A stretch of DNA of 64,000 nt from Panaeolus papilionaceus (taxonomy: Eukaryota > Basidiomycota > Agaricomycetes > Agaricales): positions 124,001 to 188,000 of the forward strand of contig JADNRZ010000017.1 in assembly GCA_015501605.1 (NCBI GenBank), given 5' to 3'. Shown in pieces: positions 31,753-58,839 of the stretch. The translations under genes and the position numbers were made by a program. Under the pieces are notes generated by a model that was not told the DNA's origin, searched no databases, and saw only the letters and a list, made by a program, of their open reading frames with translations. Position 1 is the stretch's first letter. Every line of letters begins with the position of its first letter.

Positions 31753-32264
31753 CAATAGAGAGCATTCAAATAATGCTGATGTTCTAAATTTTAGACTTGA
31801 ATTGTGTTCTACATGTTTCATTCACAACAAAGTTCCAGAATACACCTGACAGACAAGGACTGGACAACTATTTTACAGGATATGGTTCCAATGTACCATA
31901 TTACATCCATTTTTGTAGCTTATATGACTGATACGTCGGATTAATGACCAAGAAAGAAGGAAACAAGAGTCAGAAGCAATTCTTAATGATATCTTGAGAC
32001 TTTCTTCAACAAAAGTACCAAAGAAAACACCCACCAGACAATGGTGAGACAATGGTTAGACAGGATGTTGTTGAAACAGAAGCATAAGTCTCTTCTTCGT
32101 CCTGTTCAAACAACAAAAGTCAAAGAGAATACTGCATGGATATTAAGAATAATAACATGTAGGACATATCTTGTCTCAAATACACTCATATTAGTGTCAA
32201 ATGTTGTTTCTAGCACATACTCCCCTCTCATTGTATCATTATCCAATATATAACCCATGTATTT
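31753..32264. other. fold-back element, central spacer
   Basis: These 512 bp are AT-rich. The only ORF, 32041-32253, is short and has no recognisable content. It is the loop of the potential 1972-bp stem. Confidence 0.7.
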
Positions 32265-34236
32265 CCAGAAATATCCTTATCTATGATGTAGGGCTGAGAG
32301 GGGTACCTGTAAAAGAGGAGATATCGCAAAGATCAACTGCTATCATTCTCTGAACACCTGAATATACATACCATATTGTAGCCATAGATAATCCGCTCAT
32401 AACAAGCCCAATATCACTCAAAATAATGCAGAACTGAGGGAGTTACATCTAATTTATGCCAGAGTTAGATAGGGTGTTGTTTGATGAAATGTGGGCTACC
32501 CGCGGGAAAGCATACTTTAATACACCTTGTTGCCTGCAGGTATGATGATTTCTGCCTTTTCCTCAATCAATATTGCTTTTCCACCTGGGGGTGGATGAAG
32601 TAAATGGTCTGATATGTTTCCGGTTGTATTCTGGTGTTCCCGCGGGCTTCAAAACAAGCCCCGGAGCGCCCAAAACGGTGCAGAATTGAGCATAATATCC
32701 TCAAAACATGGATATCTTAGCTAAATGACAGCCGTTTTGAATGATTTGGGACTTGTTTCGGGCGGAATACCGGTGGGTACATGGTACCGGGTCATGAATG
32801 AAAGCTGGTGTACCCACGGACTTCAAAACAGGTCCAAGAGCGCCTGAAACGGTGTAAAATCAAGCAGAAAATGCTTGAAATATTAGTATCTCTGCCAAAT
32901 GTTGCTTGTTTTGGATGATTTTGGATTCATTTTGTAAAGACTACCCGCGGGTACATGGTACTGGGTCAGAATTTAATTGGAAACTTATTTCCCAACCTGC
33001 AGGAGTTAATTACTTCTGCTTATTTGCTGACAATGTTTGCAACACCCTTGGGTTATAGTTTGTTAATATCCACCTCTTCTGCGGAAATCTATGAATGGCA
33101 TCCACCCAATTCCACAGAAAATCCACCATTTCCGCGGAAGTTCAACAATTGACTCATTTCAATATTGACTCATTTCAATATTGGAATGAATTTCCGATAC
33201 CGCGGAACCTTTGCTCACAAATTAACAAGTCCACCATTTCCGCGGAAATTCACAAATCCACTCATTTGAAAATCTCCAAATTCACCCATTTCCGCGGAAA
33301 TTCAAGAATCCACCATTTCCAAATTCCCCATTTCCGCGGAAATCTACAAAATTGAATCACCATTTCCGCGGAAATTCAAAAATCCATGTATTTAAAAACT
33401 TCCAATTTCACCCATTTCCGCGGAAATTAACAAATCCATGCATTTGAAAATCTCCAAATTCACCCGTTTCCGCGGAAATTCAAGAATCCACCATTTTCAA
33501 AATTCCCCATTTCCGCGGAAATCCAAAATCCATGTATTGAAAATGTCCAAATTCACCCATTTCCGCGGAAATTCAAAAAATCCCTGTATTTAAAATGTCT
33601 AAATTTGCCCATTTCTGCGGAAATTCAAAAATCCATGCATTGAAAAATTCCTAAATTTGCCCATTTCCGCGGAAATGGGCAATTTTGGATCACCATTTCC
33701 GCGGAAATATAAAAATCCCCCCATCCCTACCTGCCCATTCCCTTGTAAATTCATCTAATCCAACCTAATCCACTACAATAAACTCACCCCAAACCACCCC
33801 CCCCCCATTTCCGCGGAAATCTACCAATCCACCCTATTCCACTACTACCCACCCACCCCAATGTGCCCACTCCAACCTAATCCACTACAATAAACTCACC
33901 CCAAACCACCCCCCAACCTCCCCCCATTTCCGCGGAAATCTCCCAATCCACCCCAATCCACTACTACCCACCCACCCCAACCTACCCGCTACCCCCCTCC
34001 CATTCCCTTGGAAAACTACCAATCCACCCATTCCAGCTCACCCGCCGCTCACTCGGAAATCCACCCTACCCAACCCGCCCACCTACTAGTAATAATTAAT
34101 TCACTTATATTCTATCTAATGAAATAACTATTTAGTGTAGTTACCCAAAATGTAGGAAATCCATGGCGATCCATGGATCACACTCAGTCATTACGTTGTA
34201 GCTAGTCCGCGGACCAACAAAGTTGCTACATTGTAA
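32265..34236 (-). repeat. fold-back element, right arm
   Basis: This is the inverse complement of the left arm with the same array of ATTTCCGCGGAAAT palindromes (about 33075-33945). Open frames in it are mirror copies of those in the left arm and not genes. Confidence 0.9.
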
Positions 34237-36485: not shown

Positions 36486-37070
36486 ATGCAAGCCACTCTG
36501 TCTCCTTGTCCTGGTCGTGCCACCCATATCGTTCGCACCTTGGATACTGACCGTTTATCATCTGATGATGATAGTGTGCTGATCGCGACGCCAGACCCGT
36601 TCGACACTCTCTTGCGCCGTGCGGCCGATGAGGCTGATCGTGCACTGCGATATCACGCATTTCTGGTTTTAGTTGAGGAAGCTACTCGGCGAGCCGATGC
36701 AATGTCAAGGGCTCAAGGTCAGGGACCTCTACTTTGCATTTCAGACTATGCTCACAATGCAGAACATCGGACACAACTCACTGAAAACCAACGCGAGACC
36801 ATTCGATCCAGCACCACTCGCATGTTCTCACTTAGGACACCTTCGTCTCTGCCTTCTATGCATCCACGATTTGATGTGTCCAACGCTTTAACAATGAATA
36901 CTTTACCCGGCTCCATCAGGTCAGCAGTGCAGACCCCAGTTCCATTCCATGAACCCTCGTCTACCATCGTCCCATCGTCCTCTGATACCTTTCGCACCTC
37001 ATCATTATCTCGCAATCACCATGTCCAACCAACACCTAACGCACTCACCACAAGCAGCCATAGAGGCTAG
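36486..37070 (+). pseudogene. gene 2-A, truncated by KDZ-B
   Basis: The first in-frame ATG, 36486, starts MQATLSPCPGRATHIVRTLD. The reading continues through DTLLRRAADEADRALRYHAF and a Ser/Pro/Thr-rich region, then stops at a TAG formed inside the KDZ-B terminal repeat. It sits in the same place and direction as gene 2-B, head-to-head with gene 1. Sequence likeness to gene 2-B is not obvious by eye, so the equivalence is positional. The product is not recognised. Confidence 0.5.
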
Positions 37071-37835
37071 AATTATACATGACGGACTATTTCTGGACAG
37101 TGGTCACTCATGTGTCAGACCTGTTGGTGAACAGTCCACTGTCTGTAAACAGTGGACTGTTCACCAACAGTGAGGGGTATTCATAAGCAGGCAAATGGTG
37201 GTTCATATTAGCAGAAAATAATAATAAATGTAAATATTACAAAAATGAGACGGCGGCAGGGTATTCGGCTACAGAGTCCGGGATGATGAAAACGGCGGGA
37301 TGTGATAAAACGGCGGGATGTGATAAAACGGCGGGGGGTGATAAAACGGCGGGGGGTGATAAAACGGTGGGATGTGATAAAACGGCGGGATGGGGTGGAT
37401 ATATGGGATAGGGGTAAATCATGAAATCAGCATGGGCAGGGTTTGGGAGGGGGAATCGGGGTGGCCTGGTAGGGGCGGCTTGATGAATCAAGGGGGAGGA
37501 GGGTCGAGTTCTGGGTAAATTTTGGAGGTGTACGGGGCGGGAATGGGCTAATTTGTTGAGAGGTGCTCAAGCTGTGGCTGCAGCCTCCACCTCATCATCG
37601 CCTCGTCGTTGTCGTCATCATCATCTCCCCACCTCCTCCCCCTCCTTGCCGTTGTATTTTCCCCCTTGCCGTTGTCTTCTCCTCCTCGTCCATGTCATCA
37701 TCATCTCATCTCGTCTTTGTTGTCTTCTCTTTGTCGTCTTCTCGTCATCCTCGTCGTCTCGTCATCCTCGTCTCGTCGTTGTCGTCCTCTCTTCTTCGTC
37801 GTCTCGTCATCCTCGTCTTCTCCTCCCCCTCCCCC
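37064..37835 (+). repeat. KDZ-B left terminal repeat
   Basis: It contains a perfect hairpin: 37121-37141 pairs with 37150-37170 around an 8-base loop. A roughly 110-bp stretch follows that is missing from the right copy. Then come six units of the 18-mer AAAACGGCGGGATGTGAT (37287-37392, with variants) and a pyrimidine-rich TCATCCTCGTCGTC tract from 37600. The Ser-rich ORFs here are readings of that tract. Confidence 0.88.
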
Positions 37836-38537
37836 TCGTCATCACCCCCTCCTCTTCCTTGTTGTCTGCTCATCCGATCCCCCTAGCCCCCTGCCCCTGG
37901 TGGATGTATCAGGAGGGCTCAAGCCGTGACTGCAACCTCCACGTCATCATCGGCTCCCCCACGTCCACGTCCACAACCTTGTCTCGTCCCCGCATCCTCG
38001 TCTCCTCATCCTCGTCGTCATTGTTGCCCTCATCGTCCCGTACCCGTCCTCGTCGTTGTCAACTTTGTCATTCCCCTCCCCTCACCATTGTTGCCGTGCT
38101 CGCCGTAGTCGTCGTTGTTGTCGTGCTCCACATTGCCTTCACTGTCGTCGTCGTCGTCGTCATGATGCGCATCATCATCGTCATGCTCCTCGTCACCGTC
38201 ATCCTGCTGTAAATGAAAACCATCTCAAATGATCAGTGACCAAGGGAATAGCCCAAAATTGAAACCGTTTGATAAAAGAAATTGATTGGGTGAATAAAAA
38301 CAAGTGGAGTACCAGAAATTAAATAAGAGATGTTATTTTAAATAAACTCAAGTTCGGGGAGTGGGGGTGTATTCGTCCAAAAAAAATAAATAATAAAATA
38401 TAGAAGAAATTAAAGGGAATGGGCTCAACTAGCTAATGATAGGGGGGATGGAGGGTTGGGATCTGGTCTGAGACGCAAAAGGAAACCAGGCTTCCAGAGG
38501 AAAAGAAAAAAAAAACGGGGAGAGCCCAGACTGAAAT
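37836..38537. other. KDZ-B pyrimidine-rich and AT-rich spacer
   Basis: Imperfect TCATCCTCGTCGTC/CGTCGTCGTC microsatellite continues to about 38200. AT-rich DNA forming the 3' flank of gene 1-B follows. Open frames here are low-complexity and are not called. Confidence 0.5.
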
Positions 38538-41050
38538 CTAGTTTGATGGCGAGGTGCCGTTGGTAGTGGATGGGGGCGTACGAAGGTGAATAATGGCAGC
38601 AGTGAGGTCCTCCACTGCAAAGGTCCAGGGAAACCTGGTTCGGCCAACGGAGTGGGACTCCAACCCAATGAAAAACAGAGCAGCTACGACGCTAAATAAG
38701 CCGTTCAAGCCCGGAAGATTTAGGGATGACCAGTCCCCATCCACGCACCGACTGACAACTGCACCGTCATCGGACTTCTGCCATGATGGCTGAAGATGAT
38801 CCCACCAAGCCTTGTATTCCTTCTGGGCCTCCTGAATGTTGACGATCTTTGGTCGGAATGTGGTTTTGCGGGCATTCTTGATCCAAACAAAGGTGGATCA
38901 TGGGGGGTCGATGGGTGGTTGAAAGTCGACCTCTCTCCTGGAAACCATTCTCAACCTCAAATAACTCCCATTCTTTCACCAACTGATCCCAGTCCCCACC
39001 CAGGGATTCCTTCTTTGTCCCAATATTCCTGGAGGCGGTCTTGAAAACGTTGAGCCACTGCGAAAACCATTTGGGTTGAGGGGGAGTCGGCAATGTGGTG
39101 GAAGTCGAGAGAGCGGCAGGGGGGGGCGCAGAGGTCGCTATGGAAGAAAGGGAGGGGCGACTTTTGGCAGAGGAGCTTTCTTGGGCTGAGCGTGACCTTT
39201 TCGCTGGTCTCTTAACGGATCCCGTCTCTGAACGCCCACCGACCATCACTGCTGGTTCACCAGACTGAGAGCTGGGCCCGGTATTGACGCAGGGTCGCTT
39301 CCCATTGCCACCGTTGATGGGGTCTGCAGAAACCATATCCGAACTTGAGGGATGGGTATTAGAGGGGTTGGGTTGGGAGGGAAGGGTTTGTGAAGGTCTT
39401 GCAATTGGGTGGGGGAAAGGCACGGGATGAATGGGGGGTGGCAGAACAGGGGATGCAGGCGGTAATGGTGCTGGTGAATTGCCTCTTGGGCCCGGTGGTG
39501 AAACGGGTGGTGAAGGTGGTGGTGAGATAGCAGGCGAATGTCCGCATGAGTGGGGGGGAGAGGGAGACGCAGGGGGAGAAAAGAGAGGGGAACCAGGAAG
39601 GAGGTCGCGGATAGAGGTAAAGCTTGCATTAGCACCCGTCAGCGGTTGAGCAAGAGGGCGTTGAGGGGCTAAGATGGAACCCCCGGGCAATTGGCTGTCA
39701 TTGCTGGTTCCAGTTGTTGCGGGTTGAGACTGAGGAATGGGGATATTGGCTGAGCTGGGAGGGAAACCGGCGTCGTCTATGTTCACATCGGGCGTTTCAT
39801 CACCGTTGCCTGAAAGCCCCACAAAACCCTCCTCTTCTGCCAATGCTCGCTCTTTGCATTCCTCAATGGCTAAAAGTAGGAGTAATTAGCAGGGGGTTAT
39901 CCATGGGAAGTGACATGAGCTTACAATAACATTGCTTCAAAAAAGTTGCATAGGTAGGCGCGACAAGCTTTGCATAGCGAGCGTGCTCCGCGCGCCCAAA
40001 ATTCATCTTCACATCCCCCTTCGTTGTTCCGGAGTGCACGCTATAAAGCCCATGGAGAATGAGTAATTACCTCATACCTAGAGAAGAAGATATCATACCT
40101 CACGATGCTCAATTTTCCGCCCTTTGCAGGCTCGGGTCCACCAGCAATGAGGGAGGCTTTCCAACCGGTAGCTTCACAGATACCGTCCAAAATAGGTTGA
40201 ATGAAACGAGTCAATGACTCAATACATCTAAAATAGAGTAGTTAGAGACAAGGATAAAGTCAAATAAATACAAAACCGACATACCTCTGTCGATCCATGG
40301 GTGAGGTTGAAGGCCCTTGCTTTAGTTGCTCTTGCCAGCGGTTGACAGCAGTCTGGGTCTCCTCAGCTGCAATTCGTTTCCATTCGTCCCTCTCTTCCTG
40401 GGTCAAATCGTTGTACATCTGCTTTACGATTGTCTCTCGGATCCCCACCAAACCAGACTTGCGACTGGCCTTGGTTGCTGTTGCTTGGTCCGACACTCTC
40501 TGAGAAATTTCATCAGCGCTAGTCTTCCGCCATAGATTTTTTCCCGTGATGGTATGGGGAGAGGTTGTGGAAGTGCCGGTGAGACAGGAAAGCAGGGCGA
40601 AGTAAGGGCTCTCAGCGCCAGATTCAACAGGGGGGAGGTCATGGTCCTTGAGGTACTGGTATGTGAACCACCGTTTGATTTGCTGAGGTTACCAACATCA
40701 GCATGTCACATGACAACCGAAAAAGGTAAATGTACAGCATTTCTGTAGACAACCAATTTACGATGAACAGCATGGTCCATCATTGCTAACTCATACTCTA
40801 AGCTAGTTAACGCATCTGCGTCTGGTTCTTGCAATTCGTCGTCTGGAGCATCGTCGTCGACCGATCTGAGATGTTGTTCTGATGGATTCTGATCATGCGG
40901 TAAGGAGGGTGGAAATCTCTTGTGATATTTGCGCTGAATTATAGCAATTGCGTCTTTGGAATGACCGCTGTTAACAGCATCTTCATAGGAAGGCTTTTGG
41001 GACATCAGAAAGTCCCTTCTGAGGCCCTGGAAAGCACCTGGGTTAACCAT
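38538..41050 (-). CDS. gene 1-B, conserved KDZ cargo protein with GGPEP and WW-LQPxW domains (frameshifted)
   Basis: Start ATG 41050 (MVNPGAFQGLRRDFLMSQKP). Successive exons carry KRWFTYQYLKDHDLP, YNDLTQEERDEWKRIAAEET, TGWKASLIAGGPEPAKGGKL, SVHSGTTKGDVKMNFGRAEH and APTYATFLKQCY. A long Pro/Ser-rich disordered region comes next, followed by PKWFSQWLNVFKTASRNIGT and DQLVKEWELFEVENGFQERG. Near 38890 the frame changes between HRPPMI and FVWIKNARK. Beyond it the final domain reads KEYKAWWDHLQPSWQKSDDG and VVSRCVDGDWSSLNL, ending at 38538. The last block is homologous to gene 1-A. One short indel therefore disrupts the reading, unless an unusual intron hides it. The function is unknown. The mixture of short globular blocks and disordered linkers suggests a DNA- or chromatin-associated scaffold, but this is inference. 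Confidence 0.7.
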
Positions 41051-41225
41051 GGTCACCTAGATCCAGACACCAATGTAAGTATTGTATTCATTGAGGGAAA
41101 TTGAGCGACTAACCAGAGTCAATAGAGTAACAATAGGGAGAGGGGTAGGGCAGAGAAAAAGATAGAGCAACGGGGGATGAAGGGCAGTGGCTATTTGAAG
41201 AAAAAGCAACTCAGAGAGGGTAGGT

Positions 41226-42584
41226 GTGCAAGCCGACTTGGACGCCCCAGATATAAGTCAAAACAAAATCGTTCCATTCCCTCTAGATTTATTTGAACAA
41301 TTTCTTTCCGAACTTCCGAACGCACTACCGCTTCGCCAGACCATTACCACACGGATTACGACGAGGAAATCGAGATCTATAATCCTCGATCCCCGCTCTG
41401 CAAACCCGCTCTGCGACCCTGCTTGCTATCCCCGTCCTCTGACGGTATTTATGTCCCAAATATCTTCGTATCGACCAAGAAAACAACTCCCAGAAATATT
41501 CATCGACTTCGTTGCACATCTCAGCCCCACCATGACCCCTGCTTTGGAATATCAACCTGGCTTAGGTATGGTTATATGCCGTTCTGTTCAACATAAACTA
41601 ATCACTCCTTCAGGCGTCTCATACAGAAGATACCTTGTTCTACGACGAAGGGAGCTCCATATCCTGGCCACTCGCTCGGATCGCACCACCGCCACGGACA
41701 CCACATTTGAACAAATGTACCTTCGAAATCTTGAACGGCTGGACAGAGAGGCCCTTCAACAAAATCCCCCCCAACTTTCTTCCACCAGCCATCATGAATG
41801 CACCTGCCCATCCTGTCCTCACCGAGTTAATCCCACCATACCCAATAGCTCTGCCATTCCAATCCCCAGTGCTACTACCAACCAGTCAACTGCAGATGCC
41901 CCTGCTACTCCCACCAGCGGGGTCATTACCTACCAGTCGACTGAAGATACCCCCAACCCAGTCAATCCCTCCATACCCACGGCAATAGTCAACCCAGACA
42001 TCCTCCCAGCACCCACTGCAGCACCAGGTGGAGCTACTGTGGATGAATCAACCATGGACATCCCTCCTCCCCCCTACGAACCCTGTCCTCGATTTGAATT
42101 CCGACCAATCAACTTTGTTAATCCTAGAGATCGCCTACCTCGTTACCGAGAACATGGACCATTCCAGCCACCCGTCACATATCTGGATTGGAGACTCAGG
42201 AATTCCAACGCAATAAGGATTGTTCGACGAAACCCCAGCACATCCAACCGCCCCATTGCAGTTATGGAGGACTCCGATTCCGAAGACGAGCCGGTACATT
42301 GTTTTACCTCTACCCGAACCTCGGCCAGCACCAATGGCATCATCAATGTCAATTCAGTCAACTCAGCCGACAACTCAGCAGAACCAATGGATACAGTCTC
42401 CGAGATTGATGAGCTGAACAGCTCTGAATACGACACCGATCCAAGCATGCCATCGCTTCGAAGTATTAGTGATGACGGCGATGAAGACCGGGACCAATTT
42501 GACCCCAGTAGCGATGATGATTTCCCCCCTGCTAGTTCCTCGCCTGAACCCTCTGATAGCTCAGACAGCGACTTCTATGTTTAG
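41226..42584 (+). CDS. gene 2-B, uncharacterised KDZ cargo protein with acidic tail
   Basis: A frame open from at least 41226 ends at 42584. The true start is not certain, because the first in-frame codon is GTG and the first ATG, at about 41451, gives MSQISSYRPRKQLPEIFIDF. A 52-nt intron (GTATGG at about 41567 to TTCAG at about 41613) probably interrupts it, joining EYQPGLG to VSYRRYLVLRRRELHI. The N-terminal 170 residues look folded (PFPLDLFEQFLSELPNALPL, FEQMYLRNLERLDREALQ). A CTCPSCPH motif follows, then Pro/Thr-rich repeats and a strongly acidic, Ser-rich C-terminus (SSDDDFPP..). It is head-to-head with gene 1-B over about 180-400 bp. The product is not recognised. Confidence 0.65.
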   Translation: MQADLDAPDISQNKIVPFPLDLFEQFLSELPNALPLRQTITTRITTRKSRSIILDPRSANPLCDPACYPRPLTVFMSQISSYRPRKQLPEIFIDFVAHLSPTMTPALEYQPGLGMVICRSVQHKLITPSGVSYRRYLVLRRRELHILATRSDRTTATDTTFEQMYLRNLERLDREALQQNPPQLSSTSHHECTCPSCPHRVNPTIPNSSAIPIPSATTNQSTADAPATPTSGVITYQSTEDTPNPVNPSIPTAIVNPDILPAPTAAPGGATVDESTMDIPPPPYEPCPRFEFRPINFVNPRDRLPRYREHGPFQPPVTYLDWRLRNSNAIRIVRRNPSTSNRPIAVMEDSDSEDEPVHCFTSTRTSASTNGIINVNSVNSADNSAEPMDTVSEIDELNSSEYDTDPSMPSLRSISDDGDEDRDQFDPSSDDDFPPASSSPEPSDSSDSDFYV

Positions 42585-43628
42585 ATGACTTTCCAAACCC
42601 AAACAGCTTTACACCCCAACTTATTAGATATTTAGACTAGAAAAAACATGTTTACAAACTGTTTTCAATGGAACAATATAATATTTTCTGTGATACGATA
42701 TCTGACCTTTCTAATTCCAAATTTCAGTCCAAAATAGTTAACGTCAGAGTCTACCCGACTGCCGTTTTACATATTAGATGCAAGGTCGTAAACCATTTAC
42801 TTTCCTAATACCGGACCATGGGCAATTCCCAAGACTAGGTGAATGGGAATGTGATCGGAGTGAAAACAAATTTATTACAAGAACCCCGTCTAAGGCTTGA
42901 GAACTTGATTTCCATGAAAATTGCTGTTCAATATATGTAAAAAGAATCAGAACAGCAGCCGATGAACCAGTTTGTCCGTCATGACTTGACCAACTCATAT
43001 CAAGCGCTTGGTTGACCAATATTTGTCCCCGAAGCAGGAACGGTGTTCCGTATAAGATGATTATGAAGGAACTTAATGCAAATTAATTAGTGGACCGAGA
43101 TCCGAATGCAAACATGTCTTTAATTTGTGAAGAAAGATCCCAATATTCCGGTTCGATGCATATTGGAAGAGGCCAATTCGACGGAGTCGGCCCATGATTA
43201 TAGTACACATCAGAGTCTGAGTCAATTTCAATCATTTCAAGTTTTCCCTTTCCAAACACATTGGTTAATGTCAATAAGATGATTCCATTTGAGAGGATGT
43301 TGATTGGTTATTGAATGCAATTAATTAGTGGACCAATATCCATAGAAAATGGACTCATCTGAGTTGGTTGTGGAACTTGTGATAATGCGAGATTTTCCCT
43401 TTCCAGACATTGTTGTTAATTGTGCTTCGCTGATTTCACTCAAGAGGGAAAACATATCCACATGAGTCGGTTATGGCAATGCCAGATTTTCCCTTTCTAG
43501 ACATGGTTGTTAAATATATATTGACGGCGCCTCTCAACTGGGTAAAAGTATCTGTATCAAGTACAAGTCAAATGAATCATCAGATTTGCCATGCTAAATA
43601 TAAATTTTACACCGTAAGCTATGGTAGG
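42585..43628. repeat. non-coding stretch with three degenerate direct repeats
   Basis: The word TTTTCCCTTTCCAAACA/TTTTCCCTTTCTAGACA recurs at about 43240, 43393 and 43487, each followed by TTGTTAAT-like sequence. AATTAATTAGTGGACC occurs at 43082 and 43320. These define a repeat of about 100-150 bp between the 3' ends of gene 2-B and the TET/JBP-like gene. Otherwise nothing is seen. Confidence 0.6.
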
Positions 43629-45168
43629 TTAAACAGACGCGGGGGGCTCTGATTCAGATAGCTTCTGCCAAAGAGAAAGCCCCCACTTCCATCTAAGCTC
43701 TTGAGATTTCGTGAACTCTGTCTTTTGCACCGACGACAAACCTGCTTTAAAAGACTCCATGGTCTGGAAGCCAAGATCAACCCATCGGAATAAACTGCCT
43801 GCAGTGTAGGAAGTGAATGAATAGTGGGTTTCTGTTGGGCCGATTTGGGTGTTGCTGTGGCAGATAAGCGCTGATGGAAGTAGAATGGTGGAGCCGGGCG
43901 GAAATTGAATGACAAGTCGACAGTCCCAAAGAACGAGATGCCCGCCTTTGGTGTGATTAAAGCTTCCTAGTGCTGTAATTGCACACCAACCAAAGGGCAA
44001 ATTTGCGAAGTCGGTGTGAGGAAAGCAGATTGTGTTGGGCCCAAGATTGTAAGTAGCAGCTGAGAAGACGCTCTGTTCAAAAGGTCGTTTGAGGGATGGA
44101 TCGTTCTTCAAGAGGGACTCGAGGGTTTCCTTGTAGTATCCATACAACCTCGGCGCCCATGAACCAAATACAGCTGTTGACGTTCATGAACAAAGGTTAG
44201 CGTTTCCAATATGTATGCTGATCAATAAAAACTTTCCAACATACACGACGCAAACCCAGCAATTCTTTGGAATGGCGCTGAATTGTTCAATTCTTGAACT
44301 ATCGGCGTGTGCCTTCCTGTATTTCGAAGATTGGTGGGCCGGCGTTGTCCCCCACCATACGACATGCCGCAACGAAGTGTGGGGAATCTGCCCCGTCGAT
44401 GACCGGCGATGAGTTCATCGGGGTCAATTCGACACCGTAATCGAGCAGCATCAAGCAGTTTTACTGCTTCATCAATGACAGGAGACCAGTTGGATGGTGT
44501 ATCTGGTTGACCAGCGAGAACGGCAAAAGCCCTGTTTTGTGAATCACACAGGGGTATTGGTGTACTATACATTTTAATATGTAAAATGGGATAAAGTTGT
44601 ATGGTTAAGCGGCTTACCACCCATTCCACTCTACCAATGTAAATCCTAAACTACCGGGGCCCACAAGGTCCTCCAATTTGTAGAGCCTCTTCTCCTCAAA
44701 CTTAGACCTGCCACCGATGTAGCTGCCTTTCGTTGTCAGTGCCTCAGCCGTGTCATTTGTGGAGTGGATGGGCAGGTTGACAAGAACGTGCTTTTGAATA
44801 GCATCACGACGAATTTGCACCAGACCGTTCTCCTTCGCCTTTTCAGCGCGCTTCTTCTTTCGGTTGGCATGACCCTTCACTTTCTTTGCTTTCCTCCTCC
44901 TCTCATTCTTTCCTTCCTGTGTGGATGGGATTTGATCGAAGTCGTTGGGAAAGGTGGATGGGGTTATAGGATCGATGGGGATTGAGACCTGCGACGTAGT
45001 TGGGCTTCCGCTCCGAGATGATTCTAATGACGATAAGGGCGATAGTGAGAAGAGATTGTAGAGATCGTCTTCGGGCATTTCAAGCATTTCTGCCTGAGTC
45101 ACGGTTTTTGCAATCTCATCAATATCGAAGGATGGGGGATCAACATATATGACATCTTTCATGGTCAT
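43629..45168 (-). CDS. TET/JBP-family 2-oxoglutarate/Fe(II) dioxygenase-like protein, 460 aa
   Basis: Three exons (45168-44618, 44531-44245, 44173-43629) total 1383 nt, or 461 codons. The N-terminus is acidic then basic (KKVKGHANRKKKRAEKAKEN), a likely nuclear signal. The C-terminal domain has the order seen in fungal TET/JBP proteins: SYGGGQRRPTNL, RIAGFAS, FSAATYNLGPNTICF. Then come the Fe-binding H332-T-D334 (PHTDFANLPFGWCAITALG), GGHLVLWD and FPPGSTILLPSALICHSN with distal H385, followed by YSFTSYTAGSLFRWV. Enzymes of this family oxidise 5-methylcytosine or thymine in DNA, and in basidiomycetes they are known to associate with KDZ transposons. The residue before YSF is H396, where the family usually has Arg for 2-oxoglutarate binding, so activity is uncertain. 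The gene is head-to-head with the transposase. Confidence 0.88.
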
Positions 45169-45749
45169 GGTAAGTGAGGGAGATAAAGTGATTCCATTTG
45201 AGCAAATATGTACGGCTGGATGATGTTGTGTATTACCAAAAGTGAGCAACGCACCTGATCAGAACCGTCGATTTCCAAGATTGCAAATGCGTTCGTTGGA
45301 AATGTTTCGGGACCTATGGGTTTATAGGGTTTGGCGGAAAGGTGGTGGGTCGTGACGGCGTCTGAGCTGGTGGGTGGGGGGTAGATTGTATTCCCGTGCC
45401 CGAGTATTTATCTGGACCCCTTTCACCCAGCCATTCAGTCGTCGGTTTGGTAGTAAGGTGAGTATATATTCCCGTGCCCGAGTATTTTCCTACACCTTTG
45501 CTACTGGGGGGTGGAGGTGGGGGTATTGAGAGGCGGATGTCGCATACCTACTGCCTGCGCATATGGGGGGCGGGTTTGATGGTTAACGGCACAGGGGTTT
45601 GTTGATCGTTTGGGACGGGTTTGTTGATCCGGGCCGCTGAGCCGCAAATGGATCACATGATTTGATTTGACAGTTTGTTGGCTTCAACTTGAACTTCGTT
45701 TAAGTCTTTAACCTAAAGTCACTCCCCCTCATTCTGCCACAGCATCAAT
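45169..45749. promoter_or_regulatory. divergent promoter between TET/JBP-like and KDZ transposase genes
   Basis: These 581 bp contain two identical 20-base direct repeats, ATTCCCGTGCCCGAGTATTT at 45390-45409 and 45468-45487, spaced 78 bp start to start. Their exact conservation in otherwise non-repetitive DNA suggests a binding site controlling one or both genes. The role is inferred. Confidence 0.6.
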
Positions 45750-48700
45750 ATGTCCTTTCCTAACAGGAAGCCCGTCAACAAGCGAACTCAAGACGCGCGT
45801 GAGGGGGGCTCCTCTCACATAACCTTTTCTTTCGGGGACGACGACTATCTATCGGTGGACGCACGGGAGGATAAGGTGCTGAAGCATGGTCCAAGCAACG
45901 GGTTCATCGCTGCTGATACAAAATCGGTGATCAAGATGCAGTCAAACACGCAGTGGTTCAACGCTTCCACATGGGAGCCGTACAATAATTCGGAATTTGC
46001 TTTGGATCCCGATGGTTGGTTGTATGCGGCTGCATGCTCTGCGAGTGTCATGGAGGAGGCGCTGCCCTCATCGACTAGTGGAGATGGGGAGAAAAAAAAA
46101 AAGAGATCAAACCTATCTGTAAGTCATCGGTATTGGCTCATGTCTTACATATGCTGACGGGGACTTCTCTTTCATAGAAACGCCCTCACCGGGTCTGGAA
46201 GGAGAACCGTAGGTCTACCTACCTTGACGAGGTCATTCGGTTCGCAGGTCGTGCTGACTTTGCCCATGCCACAAAGTGCCCGGATTGCGTATCCTTGAAA
46301 AAGGTGGAGCCTGGGTTGCCGTTGTATCGCTGCTGCTCGGAGTGCTATTTGCCAGACCTCACATGCAGGTCCTGCTGTGTCCGCCGGCATAGACGCCTGC
46401 CCTTTCATCGTGTAGAGGTATGTTATCGTGCTGTACACCCTACTGCTTTTATTTACTCATCAACGAAATCTGAAGAAGTGGACCGGCTCAGGCTTCACCC
46501 CCGTATCCCTCAGCTCCCTCGGCTTGAAGGTTGTGTTAAATCATAGTAGCCTGTATTGCCCCGCCCCCCTTCCCTGCCATCAATCCATGCTCGTTTTACA
46601 CACGAATGGTTTCCATGAGGTCAACATTCAGTATTGTGGTTGTGGTAAAGGGGAGCCGCAGCACATTCAGCTCCTTAGGAGAAGGCTCTATCCTGCGACT
46701 CAACTCATTATCAAGACCTGCGCCACGTTTGAGCTACTGGAGCACCTACACAAGTTTACCCTCACCACCAAGTCATCCCTATACGATTTTTACCGCGCCT
46801 TGGAGAAGCTGACGGACCATACCGGGCTGAAGAGAATTCGATCCCGCTACCAAGAGCTTTTTCGGATGTTTATGCAGTGGAAGCATCTCATGTTGTTGAA
46901 GTGGGGGGGAAGGGCGCACGATCCAGATGGCCCAGATGGGACAAAGCCTGGGGAGTTGGCGCTCCAGTGCCCCTCTTGCCCCATTCCCGGCGTCAATATG
47001 ACGGAGGGGTGGCAGTCGCTACCGCCTGATAAAAGGTCTGTTCAATACAATTATGTTCATTATAGGGCGCCATTTCTAACGCTTTTTAGGTTTCTTAACA
47101 CGGCCTTCATCTGCATGGATGCGAATTTCAGGCTAAAAAATCGACTAGTCTCCAACTATGACCAAAGCCCTGGCCTAGGGACGGGCTGGGCCTACTTGGT
47201 TGAACGTGAACCATATGAGACCTATGTTCTCAACCGCACCAATGATGCCGACGTATGTGTTCCCCCTTGATTACTGTGTTTATTTTAACTGAGCATGATG
47301 ACAGGTTAGCTCTTGCGTTGGTTTTCAGGCGTTGGCGCAGGCGAATACACGCTTCTCTCAAGGACTGCGGTACACCGGTGTTGGGGGGGTTTTTTGTGCT
47401 CGGTCGGAAATGGTCATACCCCAGGGAATGGGAAGTCTAGTGAAGGGGGAAAGGTGTGTAAACCCCTGTTATTTTTTTGCTACGGGTGGCTCATGGCGCT
47501 CATCGCTAGGTATTCAAACATGGATTACATCTTTGGCTCGGCGATCCAGGGCTTTAAAACCCTACCCCGAATCCTTATCAGCTATGATATATCGTGTCAG
47601 TGGTCCATAAACTTGGGGAAGAGAATGGGGGAGGACGACTGGCCAAGCGACTTCAAGATACCCCTGTCCACAGTCATCATCCCCGCCGTTCCTAAGCTGC
47701 ATGAGGCCTCACATGAAGCCGCCAATCATCAGGTTTACTCCCTGCATTATATTCCTGGCGCCGCTGAGGTTGATGGGGAGGTTCCGGAGAGGGTGTGGGG
47801 GGCCAACAACGAGGTTGGAAAGTCGACATCAGGACAGGCACCTGGAAACCGTAACGACAACATTGACGACAACTTCAGCTTCTGGAATTACGAAAAAATC
47901 ATCGGTCTTGGGCGTACCGTTCTTCGAAAATACCGCACCGCTCTAGCCAACAGGAACCTCCATCGCGAGGCCCACAGGGGGTTGTCAGAAAACGTAGGCC
48001 AGCAATTATCAACAGAATGGGAGAAGATTTGCCTTTCTTGGGAAGAAGATGGATCTGTGCCGAAGAAGGCCAAGAATCCGTATGAAAATCCAGACCAGGC
48101 AGCCAGTGAGTACAAGTTCTATTTTATTTCGACTCAACTTGTACTTATACTAGTTACAGCAATGTCCAAGGCCCAGGCGAGGAAGGAGCTCGCTGATGAG
48201 GAGCAAGAGAGAATCAAAAAGGGTGGGCCGGCCTACCATGAAACGCCTGCGGCCACCTTTTTGTCCACAGCAATAGAGATCGAGGATGCTCAGTGAGTAT
48301 TTTTTCAATGTTGGTTTTTTTATGGGGTCTAATTATATTTACTAAAGGCAACGCCTATCACAATTTTCGAAATGCGACATGGCAACGGCTACTGCTGCTC
48401 AGGCTGGGGGGCTGACTGAACAAAGAAATCAGCTCATCTCAAGAATCAAGTCCTGGGAAGCTCTGCTCCCAACCTACATGCCTGGATTGCACCGCTACCT
48501 CAAGGATGAAGAAAGCAAAACCCAGCAACCCACGCGCCCTGCCGTCCACCCAGAGCACCACGATCTATGGGTCCCTTCCAAAATCACAGAGGAATACCGG
48601 GACCGTGTTTGCATCCCCGGTCTACTGCGGATTGAGCAAAAACTGCGTGAAGCACAGTGCGGGTCCTCTTTAGAAAAACTCCGCCACGTTCTGCGCATCA

Positions 48701-49560
48701 AAAGCTGGTTGGCGAAGTTCAAGGCTCAGAATCTTCGCGGTCAACGGGAGGGTACAAGGTCAAGGGCGATTATTGAAAGGGTGCAAGGGAGGGCGAAGTT
48801 AGCAGCGGCTCGGTATAGGCATGCTCGTGGCATATTGCTCAAACTCGTGGGCCCTGGGGTTTGGGAGCAGGAGCTCCAGCCGCTGTTGGACGAGGATGTA
48901 CGGAGCTACGACGATATCAAGAAGCCCAAGAAGACGGAGCCGCGAAAAGGAACACTCACCGACAAACAGCTTGCTCTGGATCAGTCCCACCCTCCCCCTC
49001 CCACTAATCCCTCTCAAACCGACAACATCACTTTGCTTCCCCATCAGTGGAACCCAAGGGACGGGTCAGGAATTACCAACAATCAGATGTCTTGGATTTG
49101 GATTGGGAAAAAGCAAGTGCTGGAGGGTGCGGAGGGAGATGCAATCCTGCTGGCAGAGTGGGCGAAGAGTCGGGCTAGGTCAAAGAGGGCTTGGGAGGAG
49201 CTGTTATTGTTGAAGGAGGAAATGGGGAGGATTTTGGCATTTTTGCAATGGAAAGCCGATTGGTGGCTTTCCAGGGCAAGCCTTCGTTCCTGTGGGGTGG
49301 ATTCAGTATTTCGGGAGGCGCTGGCCTCATATGCCATCACCAGGGCCAACCAACTCACCTATTTGGCCGCCGACTTTAAAGCCCTGTGGTGCCAGCCTCT
49401 CAAGGCTTTTCTTCGAGAAAAAACTATCGTGGCACCAAACGGGGTTCTCCTTGAACTTTGTGAGGAGTGGGATGTTGGTGGGGGTGATGAGGATGAGGAG
49501 GGCGTAGAGGATGGCGGTAACGACGAAGAGGGGTTTGGTGAGGATGGGGATGAGGAGTAG
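45750..49560 (+). CDS. KDZ transposase (CxC2-like cysteine cluster), intact, 1140 aa
   Basis: Eight exons (45750-46118, 46178-46417, 46476-47035, 47090-47252, 47305-47453, 47510-48105, 48160-48292, 48348-49560) total 3423 nt with no stop or frameshift. The CxC2-type zinc cluster lies at residues 157-194 (CPDC...CCSECYLPDLTC..CCVRRH). It is followed by a block matching KDZ-associated proteins (LVLHTNGFHEVNIQYCGCGK, LLRRRLYPATQLIIKTCATF, LRYTGVGGVFCARSEM). Candidate RNase-H-fold acids are D400 (FICMDANFRLKN), D520 (LISYDISCQW) and E584/E587 (DGEVPERVW). The C-terminus is helical, then acidic. The protein should bind and cut the AGGCTAG-ended terminal repeats. Homology to the KDZ-A copy is clear from the second catalytic motif onward. 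Confidence 0.93.
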
Positions 49561-49799
49561 GGTTGGGGGGAGATGACAACGACAAGATGATGTGGGGTGC
49601 ACAGGGGCGAGGGGGTGATGATATGGGGACTATGATGACGTGGAGGCTGCATGGGAGGGGGAGACGAGGATGACGGGAGAAGATGAAGATGAAGACAACA
49701 GCGACGGCAAGGAGGAGATGGTAAAGAGGCGATGATGACGAGGGGGTGATGATGACGTGGACAAGGGGGGAAGATAATGGGGAGAGGGGAGGAGATAAT
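49561..49799. other. KDZ-B 3' flank of transposase gene
   Basis: Purine-rich GATGATGACG repeats sit on the plus strand. The Ser-rich ORFs on the minus strand are translations of this tract. Confidence 0.5.
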
Positions 49800-50441
49800 G
49801 GGGAGGAGACAAGGAGAAGACAAGGATGACGAGACGACGAAGAAGAGAGGACGACAACGACGAGACGAGGATGACGAGACGACGAGGATGACGAGAAGAC
49901 GACAAAGAGAAGACGATGAAGACGAGATGAGATGATGATGACATGGACGAGGAGGAGAAGACAACGGCAAGGGGGAAAATACAACGGCAAGGAGGGGGAG
50001 GAGGTGGGGAGATGATGATGACGACAACGACGAGGCGATGATGAGGTGGAGGCTGCAGCCACAGCTTGAGCACCTCTCAACAAATTAGCCCATTCCCGCC
50101 CCGTACACCTCCAAAATTTACCCAGAACTCGACCCTCCTCCCCCTTGATTCATCAAGCCGCCCCTACCAGGCCACCCCGATTCCCCCTCCCAAACCCTGC
50201 CCATGCTGATTTCATGATTTACCCCTATCCCATATATCCACCCCATCCCGCCGTTTTATCACATCCCACCGTTTTATCACCCCCCGCCGTTTTATCACAT
50301 CCCGCCGTTTTATCACATCCCGCCGTTTTCATCATCCCGGACTCTGTAGCCGAATTTTACAGACAGTGGACTGTTCACCAACAGGTCTGACACATGAGTG
50401 ACCACTGTCCAGAAATAGTCCGTCATGTATGTTCCTAGCCT
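49800..50441 (-). repeat. KDZ-B right terminal repeat
   Basis: This is the inverse complement of 37064-37835 apart from a roughly 110-bp segment absent here. It has five rather than six 18-mer units (50239-50332). Only one arm of the terminal hairpin is present (50359-50383). It ends CTAGCCT at 50441, inside the reading frame of the KDZ-A transposase. Confidence 0.88.
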
Positions 50442-52433
50442 TGAGGGGTGCGTTATTACATACGACATTGCGTGTCAATGGTCAAAAAATTTGTATAAGA
50501 GGATGAAACAATTCCCATCAGCGATGCAAATAGACTCACAGAAGACACAACTTGACTTTGCTGTCCCAAGTTGGCACATCAATGGACACGGTCAGTCATG
50601 TCGTGAGAACTTCAACATCGGATTTATGCCGGGTGCTGCCAGGACGTGCGGAGAAGAGGTTGAGATTCCTTGGTCCATTTCAAATGCGCTTGGTCCTAGT
50701 CTGGCGGAAATGGCTGTTGGAGCACAACATGACACACTCAATGATCATTTCGCTGGCTGGAACTTCCGTCGAATTGTGTCACTTCGTAAATATTTTAGTT
50801 TTAATGTGGTCGTGATTGAATCCATTCTCACACATCTCACCAGGCACTCATCTTATTCGTCGTTTGAAAGAGGCTATTAAGCAAAGCAAACGACAGGAAG
50901 AGATATATGAACAGCTCACCTCAACGTTTGACGAGAGGGTCATTGACACTTGGTCAGATATGATGGATAAATGGAACAACGACCACTCTGCGCCAAACCC
51001 TTATGAAGAACCTCAATGTGGTAAGTTTAAAGTTACTTTTGCAATATTGTTGTCCTTTTTATTGATTTAAATTACAGGCACGTCGTTGCAGGACGTTCGG
51101 CTTGCGCTAGCTAAGGAGGATGCCATCGCCGCTGAGAAAGGAAATGGTTCAAGTGCAAAACAACCTCTGGGTGCATTTTTCTGGACAGCTTTTGACATTG
51201 AGGATAGACAGTGCGTATCATATCGGACTGGTAGTGGTATTATGGGATTTAAGCTAATATTTATACAGATTTACATACAGTCGACGCAATACACCAAAGC
51301 CAACCAAGACACGAAAATCGACCACAAAAGACATGGCCGACAGTCAAGAAAAGGAAAATGTGCTACGACGCACGATGCGACAGTGGCGGGAGGACCAATT
51401 GGTCTACACACCATTCGCGGCGTCCCTTGTTGCCTCCAACCCTCTGCTAAATGACCCGGAGAACCCACCCCCAATCGAGAGCATTCCACTATATCTCCCA
51501 TCATCATTCCCAGCTGATGCTCTTGCATCTATTCCGGAAATTGGCGACAAGGAGCGGCGGATGTGTGAAGCTCAAGCGGATGATGCATTGATGGGGATTC
51601 GTCGTCATCATCGGGTTCTTCAAACACTGTCAAAATTCAGATCATCCAACATATCTGGCACCGGAAATCGCTATAACACACGTGCAATGGCAGTCTTCAC
51701 CCAAATCAATGAAAAGATTGATTTATTGGTCGCTCGGTATCGGAGGGCATGGCAGGCATTGCAGATTTTGGATCCAAACGGGAAATGGTCCATTCGACTA
51801 CTGGAGCTCAAGCCAGAAGACATACGTGGACCTGCAAAGACGAAAGAAGACGAAGAGCTCTTCAAGAAGCTAAAGCGGCGGTATGAACCCTCGTGGATTT
51901 GGTTGGTGGCGCGGATGGCGCTCGGTGAAGCAGAGATTACGGCGGAGTTCCATGAGAGTATGAGAGTGGAGTGGGCAAAAGCAAAGGCCAGAATGATGCG
52001 TTGGGTGGAGGAGAGGTTGCTAGTTCAGGAGGAGATGCGACGGGTGCTGGCATGGTTCAGTTATCGGGCTGACTGGTGGGATAATGCTGCATACCAGCGA
52101 ACACAGGGGGATGCTATAGTGCTGCAGGGAGTTTCAGCATATGCCCATAAGCAAGCCGATATCTGTAGAAAGATGGGGGATCGATGTGGTACTCACTGGC
52201 TCCCTGCGATGATCGAATTAGGCATCACACCTGGGTGGGCTGATAAGTACCCTGCATTGATGTTGGAGATTGAATTAAAAAAGAAGAAATTAGAGGAGGT
52301 GAGAAAAGGTAAAAGTACCATGGTGGCGAAAGGTGGGGACCCCCAAGAGGAGGAAGAGGAGGAGGAGGAGGAGGAGGGAGAGGAGGAGGAACGAACAGAT
52401 GATGAGGGTTGTGATGACGATGGTGATGATTAG
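50442..52433 (+). pseudogene. KDZ-A transposase, C-terminal part
   Basis: Coding resumes directly after the KDZ-B end: EGCVITYDIACQWSKNLYKR (second catalytic Asp region), then FNIGFMPGAARTCGEEVEIP with the acidic EEVE motif, and AQHDTLNDHFAGWNFRRIVS. Exons 50442-50785, 50844-51020, 51078-51210 and 51269-52433 join in frame, and the chain ends in an acidic EEEEEE/DDDGDD tail. The exon pattern parallels KDZ-B exons 6-8. The N-terminal half, including the cysteine cluster and the first catalytic Asp, is missing. The 5' part is not found left of KDZ-B, so the gene is dead. Confidence 0.88.
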
Positions 52434-52489
52434 ATAATATTTATGTTTATTTTTATGACAGATTGATAAGAATTTCGCATTGTAAACGA

Positions 52490-52872
52490 TAACCTTACTC
52501 TACATTATAATTTCGTCATGTTAGTCGATAAGAATCGTTGAATAAATTTATGAGAATTATGTGAGAATCACATTAGAATCGCGCACTGTTCCCTCATAAT
52601 AATTGCATTAGAATCGCGCACGGTGACTACCTAAGAATCGCATTACAATTGCGCATGGTTCACTCATAATAATTGCATTAGAATTGTGCACAGTTCATTC
52701 ATAAGAATTGCATTACAATCGTGCACAGTTTACTCATAAGAATCGCATTACAATCGCGCACAGTGGCCACATAAGAATTGCAGACAACAAGGTTTGAAAC
52801 ACATAAGAATCGCACACAGGAAATGCATAAGAATGAATCAGAATGGCAAAATCATTATAATTCCCCCGGCTG
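52490..52872 (-). repeat. subterminal CATAAGAATCGC array, KDZ-A right side
   Basis: The inverse of the left array: CATAAGAATCGC, CATTACAATCGCGCACAG and CATTAGAATCGCGCAC words recur every 15-35 bases between the transposase stop codon and the 52-bp motif. Units are more diverged than in the left array and do not form long identical tandem units. Confidence 0.85.
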
Positions 52873-52924: not shown

Positions 52925-53095
52925 GTTAGTAGTGATAGAAATATGATTTATTCGCATAAATCATACAGAAGTATTGCATTTTGGTGCGCTTTTTTGGGAA
53001 TTTAAGGGAATATGTATTAATATGCTGATAGAATGCAAGATAGTGTGTATTTTATCTATTGGGCTGGTGAGAGACATTTAATAATATTTCTGAAG

Positions 53096-54466
53096 AGGTG
53101 TACCAAGATTCAGGTTGGTAGCTGCAGGGATTGTGGAGAAATGAAGCCAAAAAAGCGGAGAGAGGAGGAGGAGAAGGAGGATCAAGGGGTGTTCCCACGC
53201 TCTAGTACCCAAAATGCGAAATGCAATTGCTCCCTCCATAAGCACAACATTTATAATCTATCTTCAGATCCTGAAAGTAGGCATTTGTAGCTTTCTGGTG
53301 ATATATATATTTATAATAAAAAATAGCTAAAAAGCGGTGCAATTAATGCTGCAATATTTGTGGGGGAGGATTAATTAATTAGTGTGGTGTCATTAGTGCA
53401 TGGAAGCAGATCAGTGATGCCAATTTCCCAAAAAAGCGAAGCTAATTAATGAGGATTGATGAGATTAAATGGGATCAATGACATCACACTAATATTCCTG
53501 ATCAGGATGAAGATTTGATTTGTAAATAGGGGCTCATTTAATCAATGCACAATAACCAGAGCAGATCTGCTGCTTCTGTGGCCACATTTGGCAGATCGGA
53601 CTGGATGAATGGATAGATATAGTGTATACCTTTCTAATGATATATATATCCCCCCAAATGGTGCCAAAAGCGAAGCAATATTGAGGAAATAATTGTAGTA
53701 GGGGGAATAGGGGCTGAAAAAGCGGAAAAAGCGAACCTGATCTGCTGGGTTGCTGGTACAAATTGGCAGATCGGATGGTGGGATCTTATAGAGGCTGTTA
53801 ATAGCTTTCTAACGATATATAGATCACCCAAAATAGTGCCCAGAGCGGTGCAATATTGAGCAGGATACTGTTTGGGCCAAAGATAGGGGCTTTTCAAGTG
53901 ACCCATGTAAAAAAACATTTTTATATGGATCGATGGGGATCATATGCGAAAGGCTGCGTTCAAAATTTCAGCCCAATCGGAGCAGAAATGAGCGCACTAT
54001 TTGCGATTTATATTATTTTTTCGATTTATTTTGATTTATCACTGGCTCTGAGAGTGTATTTCCTTAATTGCTCGCCAACCACTGATCCCCCCACCCCGAA
54101 AATACCCATTCCGGGACCCTGATTTTTTTCTCTACACCCCCATACCCATATCATATCTATCCGACAACATTTGCCCAACCCCCACCCAGCCAGATAAGCC
54201 ATCAGCCCCTATCCGGTATCCCCCCATCCATCCCCCCTATCCCCAACCCCCTAACCATCCTCCTACCCCTGGAATATGACCTATTTCACCCCCTATATAC
54301 CCCTACCCATCCCCCTACCCATCCCCCACCCCCGGAAATCGTCCCAGAAATTGTCCCCTACTGTTATTCTACAGTGGACTGTGGTTGTACAGTCCACTGT
54401 ACAACTATGGTTTGGACACATAACTGGGGACTGTACAACTATGGTCTGCATACATAAAGCTAGCCT
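53096..54466 (-). repeat. KDZ-A right terminal inverted repeat
   Basis: This is the inverse complement of 25125-26482, with open frames mirrored residue for residue. Near the tip it contains a hairpin in which 54371-54381 pairs with 54390-54400 around 8 bases. The stem CAGTGGACTG is the same as in the KDZ-B terminal hairpin. Confidence 0.88.
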
Positions 54467-54472
54467 CAAAGG

Positions 54473-55810: not shown

Positions 55811-55840
55811 CTTTCAACAGCAACAACAATCAATTTCAAC

Positions 55841-57043: not shown

Positions 57044-57074
57044 TTGAGGTCAATCAGCCTTAACAAGGGGGTAA

Positions 57075-57555
57075 TGTTACGCTTTACCTTTTTGTCCTTT
57101 GTCTTATCACTATACCCCTATCTCTTCTTCATCTTATCTGGACTATTATCTTATCTTCGTGTACTATCATCTCTCTTTGTACTGGTAGCTCATCTTATCT
57201 TCTTATCTTTTCCTCTTCTCACTCCACTTCCATTCCCGCTGCTGCCCCACATCTTATTCTTACCTCTGACTCATTTCTCTCTCACTCTTATGACTCGTTC
57301 TCTGTTAGATTCCCATGCACATTCCACTATGACTCCTCTACCCCGTCTTCTGACTCTTATTTATCATATGCACGGACCACCTGTATTACGTATATAAACC
57401 CCAGTATTTTACCCATGTTCTTTAGCTAGTTCTTTAACTACAATAGAACGATAACTTCTACTGGACTTCTTTTACTCGCTCTCTGCTAAGACAATACCAT
57501 CGAGCGACTCTCGAAGTGGCATTCTTAGTTAGATCTTCTCGAACTTGACATAACA
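57075..57555 (+). repeat. 3' LTR of the gypsy element
   Basis: It begins TGTTACGCTTTACC and ends GACATAACA (481 bp). It follows the polypurine tract immediately. Its last 130 bp share wording with the solo LTR (GTTCTTTAGCTAGTTCTTTA, CATCGAGCGACTCTCGAAGT). Confidence 0.82.
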
Positions 57556-58815: not shown

Positions 58816-58839
58816 ATTTTTATAATCTACTGATAATAT

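What the first reader, a model, noticed from the sequence alone, without database searches (positions are those of the whole stretch)
37064..50441. A nearly intact KDZ transposon that encodes a TET/JBP-like DNA dioxygenase next to its transposase
The KDZ transposase splices to 1140 aa without any break. A 460-aa protein with the TET/JBP order HTD...GGHLVLWD...H385 is head-to-head with it inside the same terminal repeats. Literature on fungal genomes has linked TET/JBP expansions to KDZ elements. Here one element shows the complete arrangement together with two further genes. The inferred role is removal or remodelling of host cytosine methylation on the element or at its target sites.
Basis: partly seen in the sequence, partly recalled or inferred. 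Interest (0 to 1): 0.92.

Follow-up and report, generated by a model that had tools for sequence, protein, structure and literature searches.

The report
Mushroom transposon with disabled demethylase gene
A mushroom genome carries a 13.4-kilobase jumping gene in which the transposase sits beside a TET-type enzyme that likely helps it by erasing DNA methylation, but in this copy one amino acid that all 118 relatives compared keep has changed, so this enzyme is predicted to be dead.

Summary

Found here: (1) this TET has His where all 118 other comparable homologues have the predicted 2-oxoglutarate-binding Arg, so it is probably inactive; (2) G4, a conserved partner with a predicted HMG box, lies head-to-head with KDZ also where no TET is found; (3) sister TET+ copies with intact catalytic residues differ by 75 CpG transitions among 89 differences, no better than one TET-less KDZ pair (32 of 38); (4) the element replaced 2,540 bp of another KDZ gene. 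dN/dS of 0.07-0.14 says KDZ, TET and G4 matter over the long term. Demethylation as the role is plausible, not shown.

The parts
37055..50450 (.). Whole element, 13,396 bp, CA...TG termini; no flanking 7-bp duplication
   Evidence: Ends by comparison with C10 and C24 copies and, independently, by the C43 counterpart whose match stops at 37055 and resumes at 50451
37055..37824 (+). Left terminal region/inverted repeat with about five 18-bp GATAAAACGGYGGG... tandem units (about 37304-37392) and 113 bp (37150-37262) absent from the right arm
49812..50450 (-). Right terminal region/inverted repeat
38538..41050 (-). G4: conserved gene with a predicted HMG-box domain; exons 41050-40736, 40682-40285, 40227-40099, 40040-39925, 39869 onward; changes frame near 38.9 kb relative to the C10 copy, stop at 38538
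41199..42584 (+). G3: open frame with acidic, low-complexity C-terminus (likely ATG 41451, intron 41566-41613); start not certain
43629..45168 (-). TET/JBP dioxygenase, 471 aa, exons 45168-44618, 44564-44245, 44173-43629; H343, D345, H396 present
   Evidence: fold of its relative P0087
43824..43826 (-). Codon 407, CAC (His) where all other comparable homologues have Arg: the predicted 2OG-binding residue
45750..49560 (+). KDZ transposase, 1158 aa, 7 exons, CxC2 + KDZ domains, open
37021..37054 (+). First codons (MSNQHLTHSPQ) of the target KDZ gene left of the insertion
50451..52433 (+). 3' part of the target KDZ gene right of the insertion; 2,540 bp between the two flanks are missing here and present at C43

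Best explanation
Window 37055-50450 is a four-gene KDZ DNA transposon with Kyakuja-type ends whose TET/JBP gene likely serves the element by oxidising methylated DNA, and in this copy that enzyme is predicted to be inactive because its likely 2-oxoglutarate-binding arginine is a histidine. Shown: gene order G4(-) G3(+) TET(-) KDZ(+) inside inverted repeats; CA..TG ends; the 7-bp duplication at the C10 sister; purifying selection on KDZ, TET and G4; a site inside another KDZ gene of which 2,540 bp are missing. Inferred: the KDZ protein cuts and pastes the whole unit; TET oxidises 5mC (perhaps 6mA) on newly arrived or newly expressed copies to keep the transposase transcribed; G4, through a predicted HMG box, binds element DNA and helps transposase or TET. 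Inferred: the host methylates these elements at CpG, and deamination erodes them; R407H has the form of such a CpG-to-CpA change. Copies with the full catalytic tetrad elsewhere in the genome (11 of 21 loci read) could supply the activity in trans.
Against: No methylation, expression or activity data. TET+ copies C24 vs C10: 75 of 89 differences are CpG transitions, the same share as a KDZ pair with no TET found beside it (32 of 38), so no protection is visible. The assignment of R407 to CcTet R385 rests on order, strand and spacing after the distal His (11 vs 9 residues) and on invariance; no tool printed a residue-level structural alignment, and the model was of P0087, not of the window protein. 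dS is saturated (about 2.1-2.7), so dN/dS values are rough. An Arg-to-His change may leave some activity. Five KDZ loci in the genome have G4 and no TET listed, so TET is not needed by all.
Confidence: 0.62

Rival explanations
1. TET is a passive passenger: captured by chance between KDZ and G3 and carried along without serving the element.
For: KDZ loci with G4 and no TET listed exist in the same genome (C3, C5, C14, C20:446-454 kb, C70; the gaps of C5, C20 and C70 were read). CpG loss is the same in one pair with and one pair without TET. Of 21 TET loci whose catalytic exon was read by eye (codons), 4 have substituted catalytic residues and 6 have stops or frame changes (four of these six are contig-end copies that differ from the open C23 copy only by gaps, perhaps assembly errors).
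Against: dN/dS about 0.10 over a synonymous distance near saturation, and one conserved head-to-head arrangement at 16 of 29 TET loci.
Confidence: 0.18
2. TET oxidation modifies rather than removes methylation: it writes 5hmC/5fC/5caC as a mark used for repression or for transposase recognition, and may itself promote CpG-to-TpG change.
For: Oxidised methylcytosines are enriched on transposable elements in C. cinerea and L. bicolor, and that paper suggests a regulation/suppression role (PMC8889193, passages). CpG transitions dominate in TET+ copies.
Against: The pair without TET shows the same CpG share, so a TET beside the gene is not needed for the mutation pattern.
Confidence: 0.15
3. The unit is a rearranged composite: two insertions 2.5 kb apart in the target KDZ gene recombined through their inverted repeats, leaving one hybrid element, so the present unit was never a single transposition event.
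For: No matching 7-bp duplication (CCACAAG left, CGTTATT right), 2,540 bp of target missing, and the two end types swapped relative to gene order compared with C10 and the right end of C24.
Against: Both ends sit exactly at canonical termini; a single aberrant transposition with a flanking deletion explains it as well; the end swap could be old, since the families are strongly diverged.
Confidence: 0.45
4. The His at 407 is an assembly or base-calling error and the TET is intact.
For: Only one assembly was available; the annotated protein P0088 comes from a contig of the same length; gap errors seem to exist elsewhere in this assembly.
Against: The rest of the gene is open and matches the family at 37 of 38 highly conserved columns; substitutions, unlike gaps, were absent between the suspected error copies, and the change has the commonest form seen in these elements.
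Confidence: 0.07

Closest known systems
TET+ Kyakuja transposons of Agaricomycetes (Kojima 2025, PMC12730594: abstract, sections 1, 3.2, 3.4, 4.2 and figure legends read)
   Same: KDZ transposase plus TET/JBP; 5'-CA..TG-3' termini and 7-bp TSD (C10 copy); mushroom host
   Different: The two Laccaria families described there have no TIRs; here about 600-bp inverted repeats start about 11 bp inside the ends. G3 and G4 are not mentioned in the sections and passages seen. The window copy lacks a TSD.
TET/JBP-KDZ linkage in fungi (Iyer et al. 2014 PNAS; not held, recalled and seen only through citing papers)
   Same: Expanded TET/JBP genes beside KDZ transposases
   Different: Unknown whether G4 was described there; the text could not be read
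CcTet of Coprinopsis cinerea (PMC11040006; cofactor section and passages read)
   Different: 11-16% identity in the structural alignments; spacing H to R 11 versus 9; positions H+5/H+11 are Asn/Cys in this family, not the Gly331/Asp337 of CcTet (ungapped count); window copy R to His
Zisupton (KDZ with TIRs; Kojima introduction read)
   Same: KDZ transposase with inverted repeats
   Different: Zisupton makes 8-bp TSDs; the C10 sister has 7 bp and CA..TG ends
Anti-silencing proteins of Vandal/MuDR transposons (named from Kojima's introduction)
   Same: Would work alike if TET/G4 lift silencing of their own element
   Different: Different proteins; no evidence here of sequence-specific action

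Membership tests
KDZ transposon | KDZ transposase domain with CxC2 cysteine cluster | tested here: met
   PF18758 165 bits, PF18803 122 bits, both above cut-off
KDZ transposon | Element bounded by repeats, shown against an element-free site | tested here: met
   C43 counterpart continues through the site; C10 copy has a 7-bp TSD
TET+ Kyakuja | CA..TG termini and 7-bp TSD | tested here: met
   C10: ATCTTCT on both sides, CACCC...GGCTG; the window has the termini but no TSD
TET+ Kyakuja | No TIRs (published for two Laccaria families) | tested here: not met
   Long inverted repeats in window and C10
TET+ Kyakuja | Transposase groups with Kyakuja in a KDZ tree | not tested
   No reference Kyakuja/Zisupton/Dileera set was at hand
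TET/JBP dioxygenase | Pfam Tet_JBP over gathering score | tested here: not met
   13.0 bits vs 34.9 for the window protein; P0087 28.3 bits
TET/JBP dioxygenase | TET fold | tested here: met
TET/JBP dioxygenase | HxD...H iron triad | tested here: met
   H343, D345, H396
TET/JBP dioxygenase (active) | 2OG-binding Arg after the distal His | tested here: not met
   H407 in the window; R in 118 of 118 other comparable homologues among the 120 listed
AG-type TET (Kojima) | Gly/Ser and Asp at CcTet 331 and 337 | tested here: inconclusive
   Asn and Cys at H+5 and H+11, but no structure-based residue alignment
HMG-box protein (G4) | Pfam HMG match | tested here: not met
   No HMG family listed for two window G4 pieces or four G4 homologues
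HMG-box protein (G4) | HMG-box fold | tested here: inconclusive

The most novel reading that the evidence does not exclude
KDZ transposons carry a conserved HMG-box partner (G4) beside the transposase, and some have added a TET eraser to it: together these form a targeted anti-silencing module that reads the tandem-repeat-bearing inverted repeats and oxidises methylcytosine there. The host answers with CpG erosion that disables the erasers themselves, as in the R407H copy.
Probability: 0.15. Interest if true: 0.8.

Novelty: new variant of a known kind. Interest (0 to 1): 0.5.

Why it matters
Whether transposon-borne TET enzymes really defend transposons is an open question: Kojima 2025 states that their function is not experimentally validated. 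This genome offers a natural test: TET+ elements with full and with broken catalytic sites, and KDZ elements with no TET found, side by side. The first comparison here finds no sign that TET shields the element's CpGs. It also points to a conserved partner gene (G4), named only 'hypothetical protein' or 'SERTA domain-containing protein' in the records listed, that accompanies KDZ with and without TET.

Tried and rejected
PDB sequence searches for TET: none; fold search settled it. Idea that C24 is truncated on the left: not upheld, its G4 lies at 377-378 kb, about 9 kb from TET; its left end was not seen. Idea that C43 is the other allele of the window region: not supported, since window 53-62 kb is a nest of repeats with no C43 match in order among those listed (40 of 429 candidates scored); C43 is treated as another copy of the target KDZ locus. 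CpG hypermutation as new for Agaricomycotina: rejected, already reported for Tricholoma matsutake (PMC6980582, passages) and Rhizoctonia solani AG8 (PMC4014442, passages). RIP of the TCG type: no TCG preference (TCG 17/107, CCG 20/72, ACG 16/84, GCG 11/71). G4 fold: no match at E<=0.001 in Foldseek. A diverged TET in KDZ-G4 gaps: none in the three of five gaps read (C5, C20, C70); only two short spurious-looking hits (44 and 51 aa, E 0.001) in C70. CpG dominance is not universal: inverted-repeat arms of window and C10 show 2 of 6 and 4 of 11 differences; a repeat at 58.4-60.2 kb shows 5-8 of 16-32 (about 9- to 25-fold over other sites); a more diverged repeat at 55.2-57.7 kb 79 of 278 and 88 of 349.

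Absence in print: G4 and the HMG link were sought only, in an open-licence library that does not hold Iyer 2014.

Full report
What is there. The window lies at C9:124001-188000 of a 50.85-Mb, 71-contig fungal assembly. A protein annotated in Panaeolus papilionaceus (BJ165DRAFT_1329838, partial, P0088) is 100% identical to the window's TET over the 58% it covers and sits on a contig of exactly C9's length, so the species is taken as P. papilionaceus (inference). The element has inverted repeats of 518 nt at 99% plus terminal blocks of 96 nt at 93%. Inside, from the left: G4 (minus), G3 (plus), TET (minus), KDZ (plus). KDZ splices through seven exons to 1158 aa with no stop, and Pfam finds KDZ and CxC2 well above cut-off. 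TET splices through three exons to 471 aa with no stop.

The true ends. A second, diverged copy at C10:947737-962070 has its own inverted repeats (618 bp, 95%), TET and KDZ in the same layout, G4 with the same splice sites and a G3 relic with stops. It is flanked by ATCTTCT on both sides and begins CACCC and ends GGCTG. That is the 7-bp TSD with CA..TG termini reported for two Laccaria TET+ Kyakuja families, which are said to have no TIRs (PMC12730594, section 3.2). By the same rule the window element runs 37055-50450.

The insertion. An element-free counterpart of both flanks exists at C43: window 35000-37055 matches at 98.9% and 50451-52569 at 98.4%, and 2,540 bp of a KDZ gene lie between. 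The window element therefore sits in another KDZ gene, exactly at its own termini, with 2,540 bp of target lost and no TSD. The CAGCC-type end is on the TET side here but on the KDZ side in C10 and C24 (of C24 only the right end was seen). Recombination between two insertions, or aberrant transposition, would explain the loss (inference). C43 is not shown to be an allele: no C43 match follows in order further right among the hits listed.

The catalytic change. Of 547 homologues found, the 120 best were listed and aligned. The iron ligands H343, D345 and H396 are present. At position 407, Arg is found in 118 of 120, one has a gap, and one has His: that one is the window's own protein. Of 38 columns conserved at 95% or more, the window departs at this one alone. 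The other genomic copies found by the motif scan have Arg, in all six codons; the window has CAC. In CcTet the conserved Arg385, nine residues after the distal His376, salt-bridges the cofactor, and its loss to Ala abolishes activity (PMC11040006). Here the Arg is eleven residues after the His, on the next strand in the model of P0087 (R405, strand 404-411). Equating the two is inference from order, strand and invariance. The window TET is therefore predicted to be inactive.

Other TET loci. Reading by eye the catalytic exons, which covered 21 of the 29 TET loci: 11 keep H, D, H and R without a stop in that exon; 4 have a substituted residue (window; C9:1094906 and C21 with D to N; C12:643233 with both His changed); 6 have stops or frame changes (C32, C61, C15, C20, C39, C57). 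The last four are contig-end copies: C15, C20 and C57 are identical, and C39 and the open C23 copy differ from C15 only by 4 and 12 gaps, with no substitution, so their frame changes may be assembly errors. Published predictions for L. bicolor and C. cinerea (47 of 74 and 32 of 47 active; PMC8889193, passage) show a similar mix, so dead copies as such are not new.

Selection. Nei-Gojobori estimates, window against C10: TET dN/dS 0.099 (457 codons), KDZ 0.073 (1138), G4 0.137 (517), with dS about 2.2-2.7, so rough. All three are constrained over the long term, which speaks against TET as a mere passenger.

Arrangement across the genome. Counted by eye, 16 of 29 TET loci have a KDZ gene head-to-head within 3 kb. 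One search scored 40 of 217 candidates, so this is a lower bound; on the other hand five of the 16 (C15, C20, C23, C39, C57) are one near-identical sequence. G4 hits fall at 21 loci: 14 lie head-to-head with a KDZ gene within 10 kb, 9 of them with TET between and 5 without a listed TET (C3, C5, C14, C20, C70). The remaining seven: C24 at about 12 kb, C55 13, C54 15, C21 about 20, C16 about 37 and on the wrong side, C33 with no KDZ listed, and C43:64 kb, which is 6.3 kb from the target-type KDZ gene (not's list). In three TET-less gaps read (C5, C20, C70) there is no convincing TET; in C5 and C20 an acidic open frame stands in G3's place. In other mushrooms G4 and TET homologues share a contig length in 7 cases (Galerina, Gymnopilus dilepis three times, Pholiota molesta, Flammula, Hypsizygus); only the three Gymnopilus cases, on 13-kb contigs, have consecutive locus tags, and Hypsizygus tags are five apart, while the others show no more than one contig. 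So KDZ plus G4 looks like the core, and TET like an added module (inference).

Does TET protect the element? C24 and C10, two near-identical TET+ copies with the catalytic tetrad kept, differ at 89 of 9,014 aligned positions: 75 CpG transitions, 4 other transitions, 10 transversions. Among four TET+ copies, CpG losses are 41 (C61), 39 (C32), 24 (C10) and 7 (C24) against 7, 5, 6 and 0 other minority changes. Other TET+ comparisons, not independent of each other: 40 of 42, 49 of 63, 47 of 69, 42 of 51, 21 of 29 and 21 of 31; C15 against C23 and C39 shows no substitutions. The target KDZ locus, with no TET listed beside it (the nearest, C43:80569, belongs to another KDZ pair), gives 32 of 38 between window and C43. 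Relative to other sites CpG change is about 51-fold (TET+) and 48-fold (no TET) higher, and the CpG shares do not differ (Fisher p = 1.0; the 850 CpG positions for the first pair are twice the 425 cytosines counted). Other material is less extreme: inverted-repeat arms 2 of 6 and 4 of 11, a repeat at 58.4-60.2 kb 5-8 of 16-32, a diverged repeat at 55.2-57.7 kb 79 of 278 and 88 of 349. So no protection is visible, at one clean pair each. TET may act only briefly, around transposition, or in trans on all copies, which this test would miss. The R407H and the two D-to-N changes have the CpG-to-CpA form; direction is inferred, and the closest relatives have CGA at codon 407, not CGC.

Novelty. TET-carrying KDZ elements are published. 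What I did not find in print, within the searches named under Tried and rejected, is the long-inverted-repeat variant with Kyakuja-type ends, G4 as a partner, and the TET+ versus TET-less comparison. Iyer 2014 could not be read and may cover G4.

Noticed in passing
L028-L031 (ends of C15, C20, C39, C57) and L016 (C23): Four near-identical TET copies lie exactly 1,129 bp from four contig ends that finish with the same sequence and no telomere repeat; they differ from the open C23 copy by gaps only. Probably assembly breaks at one repeat, or a shared chromosome-end block.
   Followed up: partly
L068 (C5), L069 (C20), L070 (C70): KDZ loci with G4 but no TET found; C5 and C20 show an acidic open frame beginning M(V/A)PFPTP between them, in G3's position.
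   Followed up: partly
window 53000-62000: Nest of several high-copy repeat families (many copies at 92-98% on many contigs).
   Followed up: no
window 30001-34000: GC skew of +0.53 at 30-31 kb and -0.53 at 33-34 kb, like two strongly strand-biased arms facing each other; AT skew of +0.56 at 22-23 kb.
   Followed up: no
window 37150-37262: 113 bp, starting with a palindromic copy of the neighbouring GTTGGTGAACAGTCCACTGT, present in the left arm only.
   Followed up: no
P0114 (contig of C67's length): A 723-aa annotated protein joins a phosphoglycerate mutase N-terminal domain to a weak TET match; probably a gene-model fusion.
   Followed up: no
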